Below are positions 7,408-15,924 of a stretch of DNA of 64,000 nucleotides, in pieces; within the stretch, counting starts at the first letter, position 1; each line of letters starts with the position of its first letter. Origin of the DNA: Alphaproteobacteria bacterium (lineage in GTDB: Bacteria > Pseudomonadota > Alphaproteobacteria > UBA8366 > Aestuariispiraceae); assembly GCA_024743195.1 (NCBI GenBank), contig JANSXE010000003.1, positions 310,001 to 374,000 on the forward strand. The letters run 5' to 3'. The notes below the pieces were generated by a model, which was not told the origin of the DNA, searched no databases, and saw only the letters and a program-made list of their open reading frames with translations. A program made the translations under genes and the position numbers.

Positions 7408-8799
7408 GTGCTCAAATTGCTGGCGGTCGTAGGCGACGTGCCCGCGGGCCTTTCGGCCCCGGATGACTGGCGGATCGTGGTCGAGCCGGAGCCGGACGAT
7501 CCGGATTTCGCGCGCGCCGGCCCGGGCGAGCGCGCCTTGCTCGCCGCGCCGGGGGCGGGCGTGGCCGACGTGGCGCGGATGCTCGACGGGCCGCTCGGGC
7601 TGGCCGCGCCGCTGCTCGACTTCTCGGCGGAGTGTCCGCGCCGGGCGGACGTGTCGGGCGAGCGGCTCACGTCGGAGAGCCTCGCCCAGGCGCTCTACGA
7701 TGCGGCCCCGATCCTGCGGGCGCTCACGCATTGGCCGGACGCGCGCGATCGCGTCGACGCGCACGCGCTCGGCGCGCTCGCCTTCGCCCAATCGCGCGAT
7801 CGGCGGATCGAGCCGGCCTGGGCGCCCGATCGCCGCCAGGGCATGCGGTATCCCGCCCTGTTCGGGGTCGCCGGATCGCGTCGGCTGCTCGACGCGCTGG
7901 CCGACGAGGGGTTGTTGGAGCGGCGCCATGCGGCGCGGCTCCATCGCTGCGGAACCTGCTCCTCCAGCAGATTGAACGCGGCGGAGCACTGCCCGGAGTG
8001 CGATTCGAGCTTTCTCCACGACGAACGCCTGATCCATCACTACGCCTGCGGCCATCAGGGCCCGCAGAGCGAGTTCGGAGCGCGCGGCGCCATGATTTGT
8101 CCGAAATGCGGCAAGCGGCCGCGGCACTTCGGCGTCGACTACGACTCGCCCGGCGTCGTCGTGATGTGCGGGGCGTGCGGTCGTCCTGCGGACCCGCCGG
8201 TGGTGAAATTCACCTGCGCCGATTGCGCCAATCAGACGCCGTCGGACGGGGCGGAGGTGGTGGACTGGTTCTCCTTCGGCCTGACGGAGGACGGGGTGGC
8301 GGCGCTGCGCTCGGGCAAGCGGCCGCGCGTCCAGGTCGCCGACGCGTTCGAGCCGATCGCCCAAAGCCGCAGCCTGAAAGAGTTCGGACGTATGCTGCTG
8401 CACGACCTGGATGTCGCCGGGCGCTACGATCGTCCGATCACGATCGTGCGCGGCAAACTGGAGAGCGCCGAGGCCCTGGTGCGTCAGTACGGGCGCGAGC
8501 AGGTCGCGGAGGCGTTCCGATTGCTGGCGGAACTGACCGGCGAGGCGCTGCGGGAAAGCGATCTGCTGGCGGTCAGCGAGAACGCCGTGCTCATCGCGAT
8601 GCCGGAGACGACGTCGGAGAACGCCCGGCACGTCCTGGAGCGCCTGAACGAAAGCGTGCTGCAGAACATCGCCATCGATCTCAGCTTCACGACGACCTTC
8701 ATGGACCGGGCCGAGGCGGAACACTTCCTGGCCGAGCGCGGGCTGCGGGCGGAGCCTGTGCACGGGGCCGACGCGGCCGCCGAGCGCAGGGCCGAATGA
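7408..8799 (+). CDS. TackOD1 zinc-domain protein with degenerate GGDEF-like C-terminus
   Basis: 463 residues from GTG, preceded by TGAGGGG. Residues ~176-280 carry four zinc-ribbon-like pairs (CGTC, CPEC, CPKC, CGAC, then CADC) with an IHHYACGH core, as in the TackOD1 output domain. Residues ~310-455 follow the diguanylate-cyclase fold (RSLKEFGRMLLHDLDVAGRYDRPITIVRG). The place where GGDEF should lie reads SENAVLIAMPETT, so cyclase activity is very unlikely. The N-terminal ~170 residues look like a divergent receiver or sensor region. The stop overlaps the next start (ATGA), which ties this putative regulatory protein to the glycosyltransferase and HlyD-like genes. Confidence 0.75.
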   Translation: MLKLLAVVGDVPAGLSAPDDWRIVVEPEPDDPDFARAGPGERALLAAPGAGVADVARMLDGPLGLAAPLLDFSAECPRRADVSGERLTSESLAQALYDAAPILRALTHWPDARDRVDAHALGALAFAQSRDRRIEPAWAPDRRQGMRYPALFGVAGSRRLLDALADEGLLERRHAARLHRCGTCSSSRLNAAEHCPECDSSFLHDERLIHHYACGHQGPQSEFGARGAMICPKCGKRPRHFGVDYDSPGVVVMCGACGRPADPPVVKFTCADCANQTPSDGAEVVDWFSFGLTEDGVAALRSGKRPRVQVADAFEPIAQSRSLKEFGRMLLHDLDVAGRYDRPITIVRGKLESAEALVRQYGREQVAEAFRLLAELTGEALRESDLLAVSENAVLIAMPETTSENARHVLERLNESVLQNIAIDLSFTTTFMDRAEAEHFLAERGLRAEPVHGADAAAERRAE

Positions 8800-10064
8800 T
8801 TGACGAACCGCTAAACTATCTCTTGTCGCTCAACGCGCAAGAGTTCGTGCGCATGTTCTGGCACACGCTGTTCATCGAGATTCCGCGCTATCTGCTGCCC
8901 GGGGCCCTGATCGCGTTGGGCCATGCGTCGCACCGGCCGCGGCGGACCGTCGCGGGCGGCCCGACGGCGCCCCGAGTGAGCGTGCTCTTGCCGGGACACA
9001 ACGAATCGGCGCGCCTTGAGCTCGCGGTCCAGTCGATGCGGCTGCAAAGCCGACCGCCGGACCAGATCATCGTGATCGACGACGGATCGACCGACGGCAT
9101 GGGGGCGCTGGCCCGCCGACTGAAGCGGGAGGGCGCGATCGACTTGGCGCTCTCCACCCGACTGCGCGGCGGCAAGAGCGCGGCGGCCAATCTGGGACTG
9201 GGCTATGCGACCGGGGAGGTCGTGGTGATCGCCGACGTCGACACCACCTATGACGACGACGCGTTCGAGCGGCTGGTGGCGCCGTTCGACGACCCGGCAT
9301 GCGGTGCGGTGTCGGGCAATCTGGGCGTTCGCAACTGGAACGAGGGTCTGATCGCACGCTGGCAGACCATCCAATATCTGCTCAGCATCTCGCTCGGCCG
9401 CCGCGTGACCGACATGCTCGGCATCCTTTACATCGTCTCCGGCGCGTTCGGCGCCTTCCGGCGCACCGCGCTGGAGCAGGTAGGCGGCTGGGACGTCGGC
9501 CCGGGCGAGGACGCCGACATCACCGTAAAGCTCCGCCAGGCCGGCTGGCGCGTGCAATTCGCGCCGGAAGCGTGGGCTCTGACCGACGCGCCCGAGACGC
9601 TGACGGCCTTGGTCCGGCAGCGCCTGCGCTGGAACCGCAGCCTGGTGCGCATTCGTCTGCGCAAGTTCGGACGGATCCTGAACCCGCGCCGGGACGCCTT
9701 CCTGTTGCGCAACGCGATGGGCGTGCTGGACGTGCTGTTCTTCCAGGTGGTGCTTGCGGCGTCGTTCCTGAGCTATCTGATCTGGCTTTTCTGGACCTAT
9801 GGAAGCTTCGCCTGGATCGCGGTTGCGGCGGTGTCGATGTTCTATGTCGGGCTGGGAACGATCGGCTTCCTGGCCGCTTGCGCCGTTTCGGGGGATTACG
9901 GCCGCCTGCGGCTCCTGCCGGAGGCCATGACCTACGGGCTCTTCAACAGCTATTTCCTGCGCTTCGTGCGCCTCTACGCGGCGTTGGACGAATTGATCTA
10001 CCGGCACAGCTACGACGACGACTACGTGCCGCAGAAGGTGCGCGAACGCACCGAGGTCTATTGA
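8796..10064 (+). CDS. membrane-bound family 2 glycosyltransferase, processive type
   Basis: 422 residues starting at the ATG that overlaps the preceding stop by 4 nt; the long upstream extension in the ORF track is antisense to logic and rejected. GT2 motifs are present in order: VIDDGSTDG, ADVDTTYD (DxD), GEDADITVKL (acidic base region) and RQRLRWNRS (Q/RxxRW), the set found in cellulose, hyaluronan and poly-GlcNAc synthases. A hydrophobic segment lies near residues 28-48, and two or three more follow the catalytic domain (VLDVLFFQVVLAASFLSYLIW, WIAVAAVSMFYVGLG). It likely polymerises and extrudes an exopolysaccharide across the inner membrane. The polymer is unknown. Confidence 0.85.
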   Translation: MIDEPLNYLLSLNAQEFVRMFWHTLFIEIPRYLLPGALIALGHASHRPRRTVAGGPTAPRVSVLLPGHNESARLELAVQSMRLQSRPPDQIIVIDDGSTDGMGALARRLKREGAIDLALSTRLRGGKSAAANLGLGYATGEVVVIADVDTTYDDDAFERLVAPFDDPACGAVSGNLGVRNWNEGLIARWQTIQYLLSISLGRRVTDMLGILYIVSGAFGAFRRTALEQVGGWDVGPGEDADITVKLRQAGWRVQFAPEAWALTDAPETLTALVRQRLRWNRSLVRIRLRKFGRILNPRRDAFLLRNAMGVLDVLFFQVVLAASFLSYLIWLFWTYGSFAWIAVAAVSMFYVGLGTIGFLAACAVSGDYGRLRLLPEAMTYGLFNSYFLRFVRLYAALDELIYRHSYDDDYVPQKVRERTEVY

Positions 10065-10065
10065 G

Positions 10066-11145
10066 GTGCGCCGGCTCAAGTCGCGACCGGCGCGGGACGC
10101 GCTCGCCACCCAACCGCGCAGCCGGGGCGGGCGCCTTGGGCGCTTCGTCTATCTGTCGCTGCTGCTGGGGCTTGCGCTCTGGCTGATCAACGCCTTCTTC
10201 GGCCATCTGATCTATCTGCGCGCCCAGGGCCTGGTCGTGGCCGACGCGGCGGAGCTGTCCTCGGAATACACGGCCACCGTGACCGAGGTGCTGGTCGAGC
10301 GCGGGGATCGCGTCAGCGCGGGACAGGTGGTCGCGCGGCTGCGCTCGCAGACGGTGTCGGAGCGCATCGCGCGAATCGCGACCGACATCGCCGACATCCA
10401 GGGGCGCCTGACGGAGGCGGAGGCCGAGCTGGCGGCCCGGCGCCGCCTGGTGGGGGAGGCCGAGTTGCGCAGGCAGGACGCCCAGCGCGTGCTGAAGCAG
10501 TTCGAAGACGCCGAACGTCAGGGGCTGGTCAGCAAGCGCGAGCGCGTCAGCGTCGCCAACGAGCTGTATCGGGCGCTCAGCGAGGTGGAGAGCCTGCGCA
10601 GCGCCATCGACGGCCTGGCGGCGGAGCGCCAGTCGCTGCAAAGGCGGCTCGCCTCGGCCGAGGAGGCTTTGGCGGATTTACGGCGCGACTTCGATTCCGG
10701 CGCGCTGAAGGCGGCTTTTTCGGGCCTCGTAACAGACGTCATGGTGCTCGAGGGGGCGGTCGTCACGCCGGGGCAGGCGATCGCGCGGATCGCCGATTCG
10801 GGGCGTTATGTGCTCGCCTATCGGGCGACCGGGACGCTTTATCAGGTCGCGGTCGGCGAACCGGTCGTCGTCAGCGACGGGGTCGAGCGGTACGCGGGCC
10901 AGATCGGCGCCGTCCTGCCGCTGACCGCGCAGCTTCCCGAGGAGTTCCGCGAGACCTTCCGTCCGGCGGCCCGCGAACAGGTGCTGCGGATCGATTTCCT
11001 GGGCCGCGAGAACGGCGCGGTCGCTGCGCCGCCGCTCTACGCGACCGTGGAGGTGCGCCGGCCCAACATCTGGTTTCTGGCGCGCCTGTCCCACCTTGTG
11101 CGGGCGTGGGCGGCGAGTTTCGCGGCGGACGGGCCGTCGTCCTAG
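10066..11145 (+). CDS. HlyD-family/Alg44-like membrane fusion protein
   Basis: 359 residues from GTG one base after the upstream stop. There is one N-terminal transmembrane helix (YLSLLLGLALWLINAFF) followed by a biotinyl-lipoyl-like half-hairpin (TVTEVLVERGDRVSAGQVVARL). A long alpha-helical coiled coil spans roughly residues 105-210, and a second lipoyl half follows (SGLVTDVMVLEGAVVTPGQAIARIAD). HlyD-like proteins paired with GT2 synthases (Alg44 in alginate, for example) form the periplasmic part of the secretion complex and can bind c-di-GMP; no PilZ domain is visible here. It overlaps the convergent Nudix gene by 4 bp. Confidence 0.83.
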   Translation: MRRLKSRPARDALATQPRSRGGRLGRFVYLSLLLGLALWLINAFFGHLIYLRAQGLVVADAAELSSEYTATVTEVLVERGDRVSAGQVVARLRSQTVSERIARIATDIADIQGRLTEAEAELAARRRLVGEAELRRQDAQRVLKQFEDAERQGLVSKRERVSVANELYRALSEVESLRSAIDGLAAERQSLQRRLASAEEALADLRRDFDSGALKAAFSGLVTDVMVLEGAVVTPGQAIARIADSGRYVLAYRATGTLYQVAVGEPVVVSDGVERYAGQIGAVLPLTAQLPEEFRETFRPAAREQVLRIDFLGRENGAVAAPPLYATVEVRRPNIWFLARLSHLVRAWAASFAADGPSS

Positions 11146-11654: not shown

Positions 11655-12719
11655 TTAACCCTTCGTCGCGTTGGCCTCAAGGCTCTTGATGAAATCGAGC
11701 CCGGGCAGGACCTCGCTGAAGCAGAATTCGATGCGCTGTTGCGGACCGCCCGAGTCGTTCTCCGGGAACCGCTCGCGCCAGAGATCCATCTTCAAGGTGA
11801 GGCCGCAGAGCACGCCGCCGACCGTCATGTGGTGCGCGGTCACGAGGTCGCGGACCTGTTTGAAGCGTTCGGCCGAGATGTCGTCCCAGAAGTCCTTGGT
11901 CTTGCGCTCGAAGCTCTCGAATCGCCCGGTGATCGAGCCGGAGATGTCCGACAGATCCGCGATGATCCGCTTCAGCACGCGCTCGCGCGCCCGGTCGTTG
12001 CGGATCTGCCACGAGGTGCGCAACTCATCCGTCCACCCCAGGAATTCGTTCAGCGTCGGCACCAGCGCGTCGAGCTTCTCCTGGAAATAGGCGAGCGAGA
12101 GGAAGACGTCGCCGTAGTCCTCCACGAACCGCGGAATCTCCTCCAAGGGCACGGTGAGTTGCTCGGCCAGCATGGTCAGCCGGCGCAGCGCCTCTTCCTT
12201 GTCCGGATTGCGCAGCATACCCGTCAGATCGCCTGCGTCTGCCGAAGCGTCGGCCTCCTGGCCATAGACGTTGCGGATCAACGGGCCGATGAACTGCTTC
12301 ATGCGCTCGCTCAGCTCCGCCTTCTTGGCGTCGGAGAGCTGCAGATGCTCCTGCTTGTCGACCTCGATCCCGAGGCCGCGCAATTGGATGCGGGCCGAAT
12401 ACACGTCGAAGCTCGGCGTCCGCTGAAGCTGGTCGATGGTCCGAAGGTCGTTCTTGAACGGCTCCGGGTCCGCCGAGGGGAAGAAGCCGGGCAGGTCGGG
12501 CAGCGTGATCTGACCGCTGCCGGATTCCGCGTCCTTGAACAGCTCGACCATCGTTTCGATGCGGTTGTTCTTCACCAGCCGCGCGCGGCGCAGCCCCGGT
12601 GTTCCCAACGGGATGATGCACAGCGGCAAGATGTGCAGGCTGTCGCGCTCGCGATCGGTCGGGTTTGGCGGCGCGGTTTCGGTGGTCATGGAGTCCGGGT
12701 CCGTCTCGCAGGTTGCCAT
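11655..12719 (-). CDS. conserved hypothetical cytosolic protein
   Basis: 354 residues with no signal peptide or membrane segment. It is rich in charged helices (LSDAKKAELSERMKQFI, RARERVLKRIIADLSDISGSITGRFESFERKTKDFWDDI), consistent with a helical-bundle protein. Two starts are possible, ATG at 12719 and at 12689 (MTTETAPP); the first 30 residues are low complexity. It lies head-to-head with the cheZ-like gene across ~100 bp. I recognise no domain and assign no function; a link to chemotaxis or motility is suggested only by that neighbour. Confidence 0.6.
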   Translation of the reverse strand: MATCETDPDSMTTETAPPNPTDRERDSLHILPLCIIPLGTPGLRRARLVKNNRIETMVELFKDAESGSGQITLPDLPGFFPSADPEPFKNDLRTIDQLQRTPSFDVYSARIQLRGLGIEVDKQEHLQLSDAKKAELSERMKQFIGPLIRNVYGQEADASADAGDLTGMLRNPDKEEALRRLTMLAEQLTVPLEEIPRFVEDYGDVFLSLAYFQEKLDALVPTLNEFLGWTDELRTSWQIRNDRARERVLKRIIADLSDISGSITGRFESFERKTKDFWDDISAERFKQVRDLVTAHHMTVGGVLCGLTLKMDLWRERFPENDSGGPQQRIEFCFSEVLPGLDFIKSLEANATKG

Positions 12720-12816: not shown

Positions 12817-13719
12817 ATGATGACGCCGCGCCGATCGGGGGAGCGCAGCCGGGGGCGGACCGTCCCCGCGCGGCGGTCCGACGTCGGTCAACCGCCGCCG
12901 CCGCGTCCACATCAACGAGCAGTCGAGCGCCAAGCGATGCCACAGAGCCCTACAGCCTCCGGACTCTCCCAGACCTCTTCCGCCCCGGCGCGCCGTCCCT
13001 TCCGGGCGGAGCGGGGCTTGCCGGCGGCGCCGGAGGCGACGCCGTCGCCCGTGTCGCCGCCGAGCCCCGCCGAAACGCCCGAAAGCGCCGAAGCTCTGGA
13101 CCTCGCGGCGCTTCGCGAAGAGATCGGCGATCTGAAGCGCATGATCGGGGCGCTGCAGTCCCCGGACGCCGCCGCCGAATCGTTCGACTCGACGGTCGAC
13201 GCGGACCTGGCGGTTCGGGTCGAGATCGCCCGCATGGTCAAGATGATCGGCCGCGCCAAGACCGAACTCGCGCAGATCAAGCATCCGAGCGCTGACACCA
13301 ACCGGATCGAAGACGCGCGCGGTGAGTTGGACGCCATCGTGCAAGACACCGGGGCGGCGACCGAGGAAATACTGGGGCAGGCCGAACGGCAGATGGATCT
13401 GCTGACCCGGCTGGCCGGCGGGCTCAACGGCGACGTGGAGCAGGAGGCGCTGGCCGCCCAGGTCGAGGAGGCGACGATCAAGATCATGGAGGCCTGCAAT
13501 TTCCAGGATCTGACCGGTCAGCGGACCTCCAAGGTGATCAGCACCTTGCGCCATATTGAGGAGCGCATCGTCGCCATGATCGCGATTTGGGGCATCGAAG
13601 CGTTCGAGGACCTTCCGATTCCCGAGGATGAAATGGAAGGCGACGCCGCCCTTTTGAACGGTCCCGCGCGCTCGGGCGAGGGGATCAGTCAGGCCGACAT
13701 CGACGCGCTCTTCGACTGA
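12817..13719 (+). CDS. cheZ: CheZ-like protein phosphatase
   Basis: 300 residues; residues 1-~90 are Pro/Ala/Arg-rich and probably disordered, so a later start such as ATG 12939 is possible. Residues ~125-255 form a long helical hairpin with the CheZ catalytic signature ACNFQDLTGQRT, in which the Asp and the Gln (D-x-x-x-Q) attack CheY-phosphate. The C-terminus ends GISQADIDALFD, which resembles the CheY-binding N-terminal peptide of FliM and the C-terminal CheY-docking helix of CheZ. It should dephosphorylate CheY or a related single-domain receiver. No other chemotaxis gene is in the window. Confidence 0.82.
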   Translation: MMTPRRSGERSRGRTVPARRSDVGQPPPPRPHQRAVERQAMPQSPTASGLSQTSSAPARRPFRAERGLPAAPEATPSPVSPPSPAETPESAEALDLAALREEIGDLKRMIGALQSPDAAAESFDSTVDADLAVRVEIARMVKMIGRAKTELAQIKHPSADTNRIEDARGELDAIVQDTGAATEEILGQAERQMDLLTRLAGGLNGDVEQEALAAQVEEATIKIMEACNFQDLTGQRTSKVISTLRHIEERIVAMIAIWGIEAFEDLPIPEDEMEGDAALLNGPARSGEGISQADIDALFD

Positions 13720-13848
13720 GGCGCGCGTCTCGCGGCCGGTTTTTCGCCTTTCCCGTTTCGCGACGGCTCGGCATCATACGGGCGCGGCCGGCGTTCGCCG
13801 GGCGCCGCTCTCATGCAGCCTCGCCTCGCGAACAAGGATCGACGCGCC

Positions 13849-14877
13849 GTGAAGACCGTCTACACCGACCGCCATCGGCTCCGCGCCTCCAAGACGGAGC
13901 TCTATGGCGGGGCCATCGTGCCGCCCTTCGAATGCCCCGAGCGGATGGATTTCGTGCTCGACCGCCTGCGCGCGGTTGAGCTGGGGACGATCCTGGAGCC
14001 CGACAGCTTCGGCCTGGATCCCGTGCGAAAGGTGCACAGCGACGATTATCTCGAGTTTCTGGAGACCTGCTGGGACGAGTGGAAGGCTGCGGGCTTCGAG
14101 GGTGAGGTGATCGCGGCCAACTGGCCCGCGCGGCGCATGACCCAGCGCCGCCCGCACCATATCGACGGCAAGGTCGGCTATCACGCGCTCGCCTCCGAGA
14201 CGGCCATCGACCAGGGAACCTGGGAGGCCGCGCAGGCCAGCGCCGACGTCGCGCTCACCGCCCAGCGCCTGGTCGCCGGCGGCGAACGCGCGGCCTTCGG
14301 CCTGTGCCGTCCGCCCGGGCATCACGCGGCGCGCGACATGTATGGCGGCTATTGTTTCCTGAACAACGCGGCGATCGCCGCGCAGGCGTTCCTGGACGGC
14401 GGCGCGCAGCGGGTCGCGGTGCTGGACGTGGATTTCCATCACGGCAACGGCACGCAGGATATCTTCTACGACCGTTCGGACGTGCTCTTCGTCTCGCTGC
14501 ACGGCGAGCCGGAGAACGCCTTTCCCTATTTCTCCGGCTATGCGGACGAGACGGGGCAGGGGGCCGGCGAGGGCTTTACGATCAATTACCCGTTGCCGGA
14601 GGCGACGCCCTATGACCGATGGGAGGAGGCCCTGGACGACGCCTGCGCGCGGATCGCGGACTACGGACCGGACGCGCTCGTCGTCTCGCTCGGCGTCGAC
14701 ACCTTCGAGGAGGACCCGATCTCCTTCTTCAAGCTGAAGACCGAAGACTATCTGCGTTACGGCCGCCGCCTGTCGGCGTTGAAAATGCCGACCCTATTCC
14801 TGATGGAGGGCGGCTACGCCGTCGCCCAGGTCGGGATCAACACGGTCAACGTGCTTCAGGGTTTCGAGGAAGGCTGA
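13849..14877 (+). CDS. acetylpolyamine amidohydrolase-like deacetylase (first tandem copy)
   Basis: 342 residues from the GTG at 13849 (VKTVYTDRHRLRASKTELYGG), where family similarity begins; the ATG at 13813 has no SD and is an alternative. Zn-deacetylase motifs are PPGHHA (~154), DVDFHHGNGTQ (~193), GVDTFEEDP (~282) and EGGY (~319), all intact. The pattern PPFECPERMDFV and the length match acetylpolyamine aminohydrolases (class II HDAC-like), which release acetate from acetylated polyamines or related amides. It is followed 9 bp later by a second homologous gene, so the two are probably one operon produced by duplication. Confidence 0.9.
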   Translation: MKTVYTDRHRLRASKTELYGGAIVPPFECPERMDFVLDRLRAVELGTILEPDSFGLDPVRKVHSDDYLEFLETCWDEWKAAGFEGEVIAANWPARRMTQRRPHHIDGKVGYHALASETAIDQGTWEAAQASADVALTAQRLVAGGERAAFGLCRPPGHHAARDMYGGYCFLNNAAIAAQAFLDGGAQRVAVLDVDFHHGNGTQDIFYDRSDVLFVSLHGEPENAFPYFSGYADETGQGAGEGFTINYPLPEATPYDRWEEALDDACARIADYGPDALVVSLGVDTFEEDPISFFKLKTEDYLRYGRRLSALKMPTLFLMEGGYAVAQVGINTVNVLQGFEEG

Positions 14878-14886
14878 GACAGGTCG

Positions 14887-15924
14887 ATGCGCATCATCTA
14901 TTCCGACGCGCACGAGGCCCACGTTCCCCGCTTCGATCTGATCGACGGCGAGCTGCGCGAGCCGGCGGAGGGTCCGTTCCGCGCCCACGCCGTGCTGCAG
15001 GGCGTGACGGAGGCCGGGATCGGGGCGGTGGAGGCGCCGCGGGATTTCGGGGTCGAGCCGCTGCTCTCCGTTCACAGCCGGGCCTATGTCGATTTTCTGG
15101 CGTCGGCCTGGGACGACTGGGCGGCGGCCTATGGCGGCGGGGCGGACGCCCTGCCGCTCGCGCGCGTGCAGCACGATATGCGCCGCGACCGCATCCCGCG
15201 GTCGATCGACGGGCGGCTCAGCTATTTCAGCTTCGACATCGGCAGCCCGATCACGCCCGGAACCTGGACCGCGGCGCTCGCCTCGGCGCATTGCGCGCTG
15301 ACGGCGGCGGAGCGGGTCGCGGATGGGGAGCGGGCCGCCTTCGCGCTCGGCCGGCCCGGCGGGCATCATGCGGGCGTCGATTACTATGCGGGCTACTGCT
15401 ATCTGGCGATCGAATCGCTGGCGGCGGAGCGTCTGATCGCGCGCGGCGCGGGCCGGGTTGCGATCCTGGACGTCGACTATCACCACGGCAATGGGCCGCA
15501 ATCGATCTTCTATCGCCGCGGCGACGTATTCTACGGCTCGATCCACGGGGACCCGGCGGACGAGTATCCCTTCTTCACCGGCTACGCCGACGAAACGGGG
15601 GAGGGCGCGGGCGAGGGCGCGACGCTCAATATCCCGCTGCCCTTCGGAACCGGGTGGGACGCCTACGAGCCGGCGTTGCGGCGTCTGCTCGCCGCCGTGC
15701 GCGCCTTCGGGCCGGACGCCCTGGTGATCGCCATGGGCGTCGACACCCACAAGGACGATCCGATCAGCCGGTTCCGCTTGGAAATCGACCATTATCCGCG
15801 GATCGGCGCGGCGATCGCGAACCTCGGCCTGCCGACGGTCTGGATCAATGGCGGCGGGTACGATCGCGAGGCGTTGCGGCGCGGCGTCCCGGCGATGCTG
15901 TCCGGCTTCGAGGGCGGCCTTTAG
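14887..15924 (+). CDS. acetylpolyamine amidohydrolase-like deacetylase (second tandem copy)
   Basis: 345 residues, homologous along its length to the preceding gene but clearly diverged. Motifs are RPGGHHAG (~155; Gly replaces the second Pro of PPGHH), YCYLAIESLAAE (where the partner has YCFLNNAAIAAQ), DVDYHHGNGPQ (~194), GVDTHKDDPIS and NGGGYD. The metal ligands and catalytic histidines are kept, so it should be active but with different substrate contacts. The stop codon touches the remnant of an fcl-like gene on the other strand (15921), which is itself interrupted by the IS630 element. Confidence 0.88.
   Translation: MRIIYSDAHEAHVPRFDLIDGELREPAEGPFRAHAVLQGVTEAGIGAVEAPRDFGVEPLLSVHSRAYVDFLASAWDDWAAAYGGGADALPLARVQHDMRRDRIPRSIDGRLSYFSFDIGSPITPGTWTAALASAHCALTAAERVADGERAAFALGRPGGHHAGVDYYAGYCYLAIESLAAERLIARGAGRVAILDVDYHHGNGPQSIFYRRGDVFYGSIHGDPADEYPFFTGYADETGEGAGEGATLNIPLPFGTGWDAYEPALRRLLAAVRAFGPDALVIAMGVDTHKDDPISRFRLEIDHYPRIGAAIANLGLPTVWINGGGYDREALRRGVPAMLSGFEGGL

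What the first reader, a model, noticed from the sequence alone, without database searches (positions are those of the whole stretch)
7408..11145. TackOD1/degenerate-GGDEF protein coupled to a processive polysaccharide synthase and an HlyD-like exporter
Three genes with 4-nt overlap and 1-nt spacing join a zinc-ribbon TackOD1 protein, whose GGDEF site reads SENAV, to a BcsA-like GT2 and an Alg44/HlyD-like protein. No PilZ domain is visible. A catalytically dead cyclase fold with a TackOD1 domain could be the regulatory subunit replacing the usual c-di-GMP receptor. TackOD1 was described mostly from domain surveys and has no known mechanism to my knowledge.
Basis: partly seen in the sequence, partly recalled or inferred. 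Interest (0 to 1): 0.68.

Follow-up and report, generated by a model that had tools for sequence, protein, structure and literature searches.

The report
An Mxd-type c-di-GMP-controlled polysaccharide operon
Three overlapping genes encode a membrane polysaccharide synthase, its export partner and a zinc-ribbon protein with a dead cyclase fold that most likely senses the biofilm signal c-di-GMP; it is a distant relative of the Shewanella mxdABC biofilm operon, and the same gene trio occurs in about nine bacterial phyla.

Summary
In detail: 7408-8799, 8796-10064 and 10066-11145 are a tight operon encoding a TackOD1 plus degenerate-GGDEF protein, a processive GT2 synthase and an HlyD-like adaptor, with no PilZ. 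The system has a studied relative. Using published primer sequences I located the Shewanella oneidensis mxd operon. MxdA is a TackOD1/degenerate-GGDEF protein (238.7 bits to TackOD1), overlapping the GT2 gene mxdB and followed by mxdC in the same order. MxdA is reported to bind c-di-GMP and CheY3 and is needed for aggregation. The window cassette is therefore an mxdABC-type operon. The trio is conserved: the synthase gene directly follows in 31 of 35 TackOD1 genes from genome surveys and 116 of 122 loci overall. Among 61 members outside Bacteroidota/Balneolota and one Rhizobiales-rich clade, D385 and R382 are the two most conserved of 122 GGDEF-like columns. The triad is missing from 35 of 36 Bacteroidota/Balneolota hosts, which have no confident GGDEF match. 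A mini-TackOD1 beside GT2+HlyD (Sinorhizobium) and a lone TackOD1 beside GT2 (Halorussus) suggest the zinc ribbon is the constant synthase partner.

The parts
7408..8799 (+). mxdA-like gene: REC-like N-terminal part, TackOD1 zinc ribbon, degenerate GGDEF (463 aa, GTG start)
   Evidence: homologue of S. oneidensis MxdA, BLASTP E=4e-25
7465..7758 (+). N-terminal alpha/beta region (residues ~20-117), possibly a degenerate receiver domain; weak evidence
   Evidence: model strands and helices 22-106; hhalign to true REC domains of relatives P=0.0024 but probability only 12%
7774..8277 (+). TackOD1 domain (residues 123-290) with six ligand pairs C181/C184, C195/C198, H210/C214, C231/C234, C254/C257, C270/C273
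   Evidence: PF18551 141.9 bits; H210/C214 and C231/C234 kept in 118 of 118 relatives, the other pairs in 113-117
8359..8727 (+). degenerate GGDEF-like domain (residues ~318-440)
   Evidence: profile to solved GGDEF structures E=2.2e-15; Foldseek top hits are GGDEF domains
8551..8562 (+). I-site RxxD motif RESD (R382, D385)
   Evidence: rank 2 and 1 of 122 columns in 61 members
8575..8592 (+). position of the lost GGDEF signature (SENAVL, residues 390-395)
8641..8643 (+). third I-site residue R412, at the place equivalent to PleD R390 (equivalence from my knowledge of PleD)
   Evidence: rank 10 of 122 columns
8796..10064 (+). mxdB-like processive membrane GT2 synthase (422 aa): DVD 147-149, D239, QRLRW 275-279, transmembrane helices
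9909..10061 (+). C-terminal tail of the GT2 (residues 372-422), conserved in the TackOD1-linked GT2s; candidate interface
   Evidence: tail HMM hits Sinorhizobium (E=1.4e-8), weakly L149, and MxdB (E=1.8e-22), none of the nine TackOD1-less GT2 loci L174-L182 nor Halorubrum, and not Halorussus
10066..11145 (+). mxdC-like HlyD-family periplasmic adaptor (359 aa)
   Evidence: BLASTP to MxdC E=3e-8 over the N-terminal part

Best explanation
The three genes are an mxdABC-type, c-di-GMP-gated exopolysaccharide synthase operon. The GT2 protein polymerises an activated sugar and threads the chain through its own membrane channel; the HlyD-like protein guides it across the periplasm, probably with an outer-membrane partner encoded elsewhere. 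The first protein is the cytoplasmic regulatory subunit: its cyclase fold is catalytically dead and binds c-di-GMP at the old inhibitory site (R382, D385, R412), and the change is passed to the synthase through the TackOD1 zinc ribbon. Shown here: domains, motifs, gene order, conservation, homology to MxdABC. Known for the Shewanella homologue from the literature: c-di-GMP binding, contact with CheY3, need in aggregation and biofilm. Inferred: c-di-GMP binding by this protein, contact of TackOD1 with the synthase (perhaps its C-terminal tail), activation rather than inhibition, and the sugar.
For: Homology and gene order with S. oneidensis mxdABC, found through primer sequences of PMC3691769. 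MxdA reported as c-di-GMP-binding effector that interacts with CheY3 and the cyclase PdgA (PMC7666153; PMC11395469); mxdA and mxdB deletion mutants are deficient in aggregation (PMC3691769). I-site triad retained and top-ranked in conservation. The R-D-R triad is absent in 35 of 36 Bacteroidota/Balneolota hosts, none of which has a GGDEF match over cut-off, against 46 of 67 other hosts that keep R-D-[RK]. Own genome has 13 GGDEF matches. Trio conserved. OEP/TolC-like gene beside the trio in several loci. Same mechanism established for PelD (PMC7112168) and BcsE (PMC7439463).
Against: No binding was measured for this protein. The match between triad and host c-di-GMP rests on one independent contrast in the tree. 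A Rhizobiales/Rhodobacterales clade with GGDEF proteins in its hosts has lost the triad. Identity to MxdA is only 26% over 286 residues, and the window protein belongs to a different branch from the gammaproteobacterial mxdABC-order genes. The substrate sugar and the outer-membrane partner are unknown.
Confidence: 0.78

Rival explanations
1. The zinc-ribbon protein is an obligate structural or assembly subunit of the synthase. The GGDEF-like domain is only a dimerisation or protein-contact surface, so c-di-GMP is not sensed; signals arrive through receiver proteins (CheY-like) or fused REC domains.
For: The trio exists in 36 Bacteroidota/Balneolota hosts with no GGDEF match over cut-off. Sinorhizobium medicae has GT2+HlyD with a mini-TackOD1 and no GGDEF-like domain. 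Halorussus has a lone TackOD1 beside DUF2334 and GT2. Some Rhizobiales/Rhodobacterales members carry a true REC domain and lack the triad. CheY3 binds MxdA (PMC7666153).
Against: In the group to which the window protein belongs R382 and D385 are the most conserved columns of the domain, hard to explain without a ligand; MxdA is reported to bind c-di-GMP.
Confidence: 0.17
2. The protein is an active or unusual nucleotide cyclase that makes a signal for the synthase (several relatives are annotated as diguanylate cyclase).
For: GGDEF fold; database annotation in Aeromonas and Plesiomonas relatives.
Against: GG[DE]EF is lost in all 118 members aligned; positions 391-395 rank 25-82 of 122 in conservation.
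Confidence: 0.03
3. TackOD1 proteins are DNA- or RNA-binding regulators of the neighbouring genes, as a zinc ribbon might suggest.
For: Weak resemblance to other zinc ribbons, some of transcription factors, in Pfam; archaeal REC-wHTH-TackOD1 proteins exist (PMC5847659).
Against: Almost invariable pairing with a membrane GT2 gene across about nine phyla, and the effector role reported for MxdA.
Confidence: 0.02

Closest known systems
Shewanella oneidensis mxdABCD (MxdA SO4180, MxdB, MxdC)
   Same: Same gene order A-B-C, ATGA overlap of A and B, TackOD1 plus degenerate GGDEF in MxdA, GT2 MxdB with the same C-terminal tail, HlyD-like MxdC.
   Different: 26%, 32% and 26% identity over the aligned parts; MxdA has RVTD with K instead of R at the third I-site position; no mxdD was identified next to the window trio.
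PelD (Pel polysaccharide c-di-GMP receptor)
   Same: Degenerate GGDEF domain with RxxD plus a second basic residue, encoded with a synthase; streptococcal PelD lost the domain where c-di-GMP is absent (PMC7112168).
   Different: PelD has a GAF domain and a membrane part and no TackOD1; the Pel system is different in composition.
BcsE (cellulose secretion regulator)
   Same: Cytoplasmic synthase regulator with a degenerate receiver-GGDEF tandem that binds c-di-GMP at the I-site (PMC7439463).
   Different: No zinc ribbon; works beside a PilZ-bearing BcsA and with BcsF, BcsR and BcsQ.
BgsA of Sinorhizobium meliloti (mixed-linkage glucan synthase)
   Same: PilZ-free GT2 synthase activated by c-di-GMP (PMC5567048).
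   Different: c-di-GMP binds the synthase's own C-terminal domain rather than a separate regulatory protein.
TackOD1 (thaumarchaeal output domain 1)
   Different: Described in archaeal response regulators and type IV pilus loci, with function called obscure and no link to polysaccharide synthases in the passages read.

Membership tests
Mxd-type operon (mxdABC) | gene order A-B-C with tight or overlapping junctions | tested here: met
   window; MR-1 locus L189
Mxd-type operon (mxdABC) | MxdA homologue with TackOD1 and degenerate GGDEF | tested here: met
Mxd-type operon (mxdABC) | MxdB homologue, including the C-terminal tail | tested here: met
   BLASTP E=2e-52; tail HMM
Mxd-type operon (mxdABC) | MxdC homologue | tested here: met
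   BLASTP E=3e-8, N-terminal part only
Mxd-type operon (mxdABC) | mxdD as fourth gene | tested here: inconclusive
   A NUDIX gene on the other strand follows the window trio; mxdD was not resolved in L189 either, so no comparison with its sequence could be made
Mxd-type operon (mxdABC) | c-di-GMP binding and biofilm role | not testable with these tools
   known for S. oneidensis from papers only
I-site c-di-GMP receptor (PelD/BcsE type) | loss of the catalytic GGDEF motif | tested here: met
I-site c-di-GMP receptor (PelD/BcsE type) | RxxD plus second basic residue in place | tested here: met
   R382, D385, R412
I-site c-di-GMP receptor (PelD/BcsE type) | binds c-di-GMP | not testable with these tools
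   -
PelD proper | GAF domain and membrane anchor, pel operon | tested here: not met
   no GAF hit; neighbours differ
TackOD1 domain family | Pfam PF18551 over the gathering score, Cys/His pairs | tested here: met
PgaC/IcaA or NodC synthase | NCBIfam equivalog cut-off | tested here: not met
   159.3 bits against 422.3 and 90 against 550
Processive membrane GT2 (HAS/BcsA fold) | DxD, acidic catalytic motif, QxxRW, membrane helices, fold | tested here: met
PilZ-regulated synthase (BcsA, Alg44) | PilZ domain | tested here: not met
   no PilZ hit in any of the three

The most novel reading that the evidence does not exclude
TackOD1 is a general coupling module for one branch of membrane polysaccharide synthases in bacteria and some archaea: the zinc ribbon clamps the synthase, perhaps through its C-terminal tail, while the attached domain is exchangeable: an I-site c-di-GMP receptor in most lineages, a phosphorylatable REC domain in some Rhizobiales/Rhodobacterales, something unknown in c-di-GMP-free Bacteroidota, and nothing in the mini-versions of Sinorhizobium and Halorussus.
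Probability: 0.45. Interest if true: 0.68.

Novelty: new member of a known kind. Interest (0 to 1): 0.52.

Why it matters
It ties a domain described only from archaeal surveys to an experimentally studied biofilm system, and offers the Mxd machinery as a polysaccharide synthase type present in about nine phyla. It predicts a binding site that can be tested at once, warns that 'diguanylate cyclase' annotations of these proteins are very likely wrong, and shows a natural experiment: the same synthase module kept with and without c-di-GMP.

Tried and rejected
Standard c-di-GMP domains in the trio: no PilZ. Active cyclase: rejected, signature lost in all 118 members. Universal c-di-GMP receptor for the whole family: rejected, R382 drops to rank 110 of 122 in Bacteroidota/Balneolota and their hosts show no GGDEF match over cut-off. 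Phylogenetically independent test of triad against host c-di-GMP: only one contrast, no power. N-terminal region as receiver domain: only weak support. A conserved GT2 tail as TackOD1 interface: consistent in bacteria, but confounded with relatedness and absent in Halorussus. Four TackOD1 genes without a tandem GT2 (L144, L148-L150) lie in other settings; L149 still has sugar-modifying genes near. BgsA from pSymB could not be compared because that record carries no annotation. The two primary MxdA papers (Rakshe 2011, Gambari 2019) are not held, so MxdA's c-di-GMP binding is taken from later papers that cite them.
Full report
OBSERVATION. TK, 7408-8799 (463 aa, GTG start), overlaps GT, 8796-10064 (422 aa), by ATGA; MF, 10066-11145 (359 aa, GTG), begins one base after the GT stop. 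Pfam gives TackOD1 for TK residues 123-290 at 141.9 bits (cut-off 32), GT2 families for GT, and HlyD/biotinyl-lipoyl families for MF; there is no PilZ hit in any of them. The GGDEF match of TK alone is below threshold (12.7 bits), but a profile of 63 relatives matches solved GGDEF domains at E=2.2e-15 over positions 307-424. The AlphaFold model (mean pLDDT 88.9) has GGDEF domains as its best PDB matches. The GT model (mean pLDDT 93.8) matches hyaluronan synthases, an archaeal mannosyltransferase and BcsA. The DxD, acidic and QxxRW positions (D147, D149, D239, Q275, R276, R278, W279) are invariant in 58 relatives.

THE MISSED MOTIF. The catalytic signature is gone (SENAV, or ENAVL if the one-residue gap is placed earlier). 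Upstream lies RESD: R382 and D385 are the RxxD of an inhibitory site, and R412 sits where the third I-site arginine is expected (the placement of the third arginine follows my knowledge of PleD). None of 118 aligned relatives keeps GG[DE]EF.

CONSERVATION OF THE TRIO. TackOD1 was sought in evenly drawn genomes of the own class, of Pseudomonadota, of the phylum of a Bacteroidota host and of the phylum of an Acidobacteriota host. Of 35 distinct hits over the Pfam cut-off, 31 are followed in tandem by the GT2, with an HlyD-like gene near (with L021, L062, L087 and L091). Over all 122 loci examined, including a targeted scan of GTDB genomes and plasmids, the GT2 directly follows in 116, and an HlyD-like gene lies on the same strand within 6.5 kb in 115. 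These 122 are not a random sample, since most were found by similarity to a first alignment. Most of the failures are contig ends; four (L144, L148, L149, L150) are real or unresolved exceptions. Order is TK-GT-MF in Alphaproteobacteria and MF-TK-GT in Bacteroidota and many Gammaproteobacteria. An outer-membrane efflux (OEP) gene lies in the cluster in several loci, and a UDP-sugar dehydrogenase in the two flavobacterial/balneolal loci checked. Record titles cover Pseudomonadota, Bacteroidota, Balneolota, Calditrichota, Acidobacteriota, Synergistota, Caldisericota, Thermodesulfobacteriota and candidate division KSB1. The domain is rare (9 of 385 genomes in the class over cut-off) and the cassette accessory: three family relatives keep the upstream gene and HPPD without the cassette next to them.

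THE KNOWN RELATIVE. The order regulator-GT2-HlyD recalled mxdABCD of Shewanella oneidensis (memory, used as a lead). To test it I took the mxd promoter primers printed in PMC3691769 and looked for the 21-base genomic part of one in the family of a TackOD1-bearing genome with OmcA/MtrC-type decaheme cytochromes. One of 153 genomes has it, exactly, on a contig of 4,969,811 bases, which I recall as the length of the MR-1 chromosome. All five primer segments lie there in the right order, and the first ORF after them (462 aa) is therefore MxdA. It scores 238.7 bits to TackOD1 and 22.5 to GGDEF, overlaps the GT2 MxdB by ATGA, and MxdC follows. BLASTP to the window proteins gives E=4e-25, 2e-52 and 3e-8. 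In S. oneidensis, mxdA and mxdB mutants are deficient in aggregation and mxd mutants form flat biofilms. MxdA is described as a c-di-GMP-binding effector that interacts with CheY3 and the cyclase PdgA. MxdA itself reads RVTD with K at the third place (my alignment), so R-D-K as well as R-D-R should count as a possible site. No paper in the held library other than the archaeal survey uses the word TackOD1, so the link MxdA = TackOD1 appears not to have been written about there.

IS THE SITE UNDER SELECTION? In the 61 members left after taking out Bacteroidota/Balneolota and one Rhizobiales-rich clade, D385 (98%) and R382 (95%) rank 1 and 2 of 122 columns of the GGDEF-like domain and R412 ranks 10, while positions 391-395 rank 25-82. 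Leaving that clade out was a choice made after seeing that it lacks the motif; with it included the ranks are 4, 3 and 15. In the 36 Bacteroidota/Balneolota members R382 falls to rank 110. Their genomes have no GGDEF match over the Pfam cut-off (one has a marginal match), while every other whole host genome tested has at least three. The R-D-[RK] triad is kept in 46 of 67 other hosts and 1 of 36 of these. The Fisher value is small, but the tree holds one independent contrast only, so this is a consistent picture, not a statistical proof.

EXCHANGEABLE INPUT. Eight of 72 members scanned have a Pfam receiver domain. The members read here as having an N-terminal REC with the expected Asp and Lys all lack the triad, and in two loci Hpt and sensor-kinase-like genes lie beside the operon. 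With CheY3 binding MxdA, this reads as the same receiver contact in fused form (inference). Sinorhizobium medicae has GT2, HlyD and a mini-TackOD1 of about 79 residues. Halorussus has a lone 145-residue TackOD1 followed by a DUF2334 gene and a GT2. The H210/C214 and C231/C234 pairs and D244 are kept in all 118 relatives. The constant partner of the synthase is thus the zinc ribbon.

MECHANISM. Most likely the protein is a c-di-GMP-gated regulatory subunit in the manner of PelD (PMC7112168) and BcsE (PMC7439463), acting on a PilZ-free synthase. Steps shown: architecture, conserved linkage, retained and conserved I-site, homology to MxdABC. Steps known for the homologue: c-di-GMP binding, CheY3 contact, biofilm role. 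Steps inferred: binding here, contact of the zinc ribbon with the synthase, direction of control. A GT2 C-terminal tail conserved in the TackOD1-linked GT2s and in MxdB is a candidate contact, but it is also a mark of relatedness and is absent in Halorussus.

VERDICT. The finding is real and better than its first reading, but it is not a new kind of system: it is a member of the Mxd type. What is new is the breadth, the identity of MxdA as a TackOD1 protein, and the comparative evidence on which part is constant and which part is input.

Noticed in passing
12817-13719 (+): A CheZ (CheY-P phosphatase) gene lies about 1.7 kb downstream of the mxd-like trio; MxdA of Shewanella binds CheY3, so the closeness may or may not be chance.
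   Followed up: no
13813-15924 (+): Two histone-deacetylase-family genes in tandem, 9 bases apart.
   Followed up: no
11655-12719 (-): A 354-aa protein without any Pfam match over its cut-off between the NUDIX and CheZ genes.
   Followed up: partly
L107:8323-8559: Sinorhizobium medicae: stand-alone mini-TackOD1 of about 79 aa after a GT2-HlyD pair, with no GGDEF-like domain.
   Followed up: partly
L106:6227-9188: Halorussus halophilus plasmid: lone TackOD1 zinc ribbon, DUF2334 gene and GT2 in a row in an archaeon.
   Followed up: partly
L002/L143 (G012): In a family relative of the host two of the six zinc-ligand pairs of TackOD1 are lost (C195/C198 and C254/C257 equivalents) although the operon is intact.
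   Followed up: partly
L151 (G460): The one member in a Bacteroidota-survey genome without GGDEF matches that still reads R-D-R.
   Followed up: no
L007:7461-8843; L012:7470-8825: Relatives in Aeromonas caviae and Plesiomonas shigelloides plasmids are annotated as diguanylate cyclase although the catalytic motif is missing.
   Followed up: yes
L011:7509-8794: In Alisedimentitalea scapharcae the TackOD1 gene is split in two ORFs, apparently by a frameshift.
   Followed up: no
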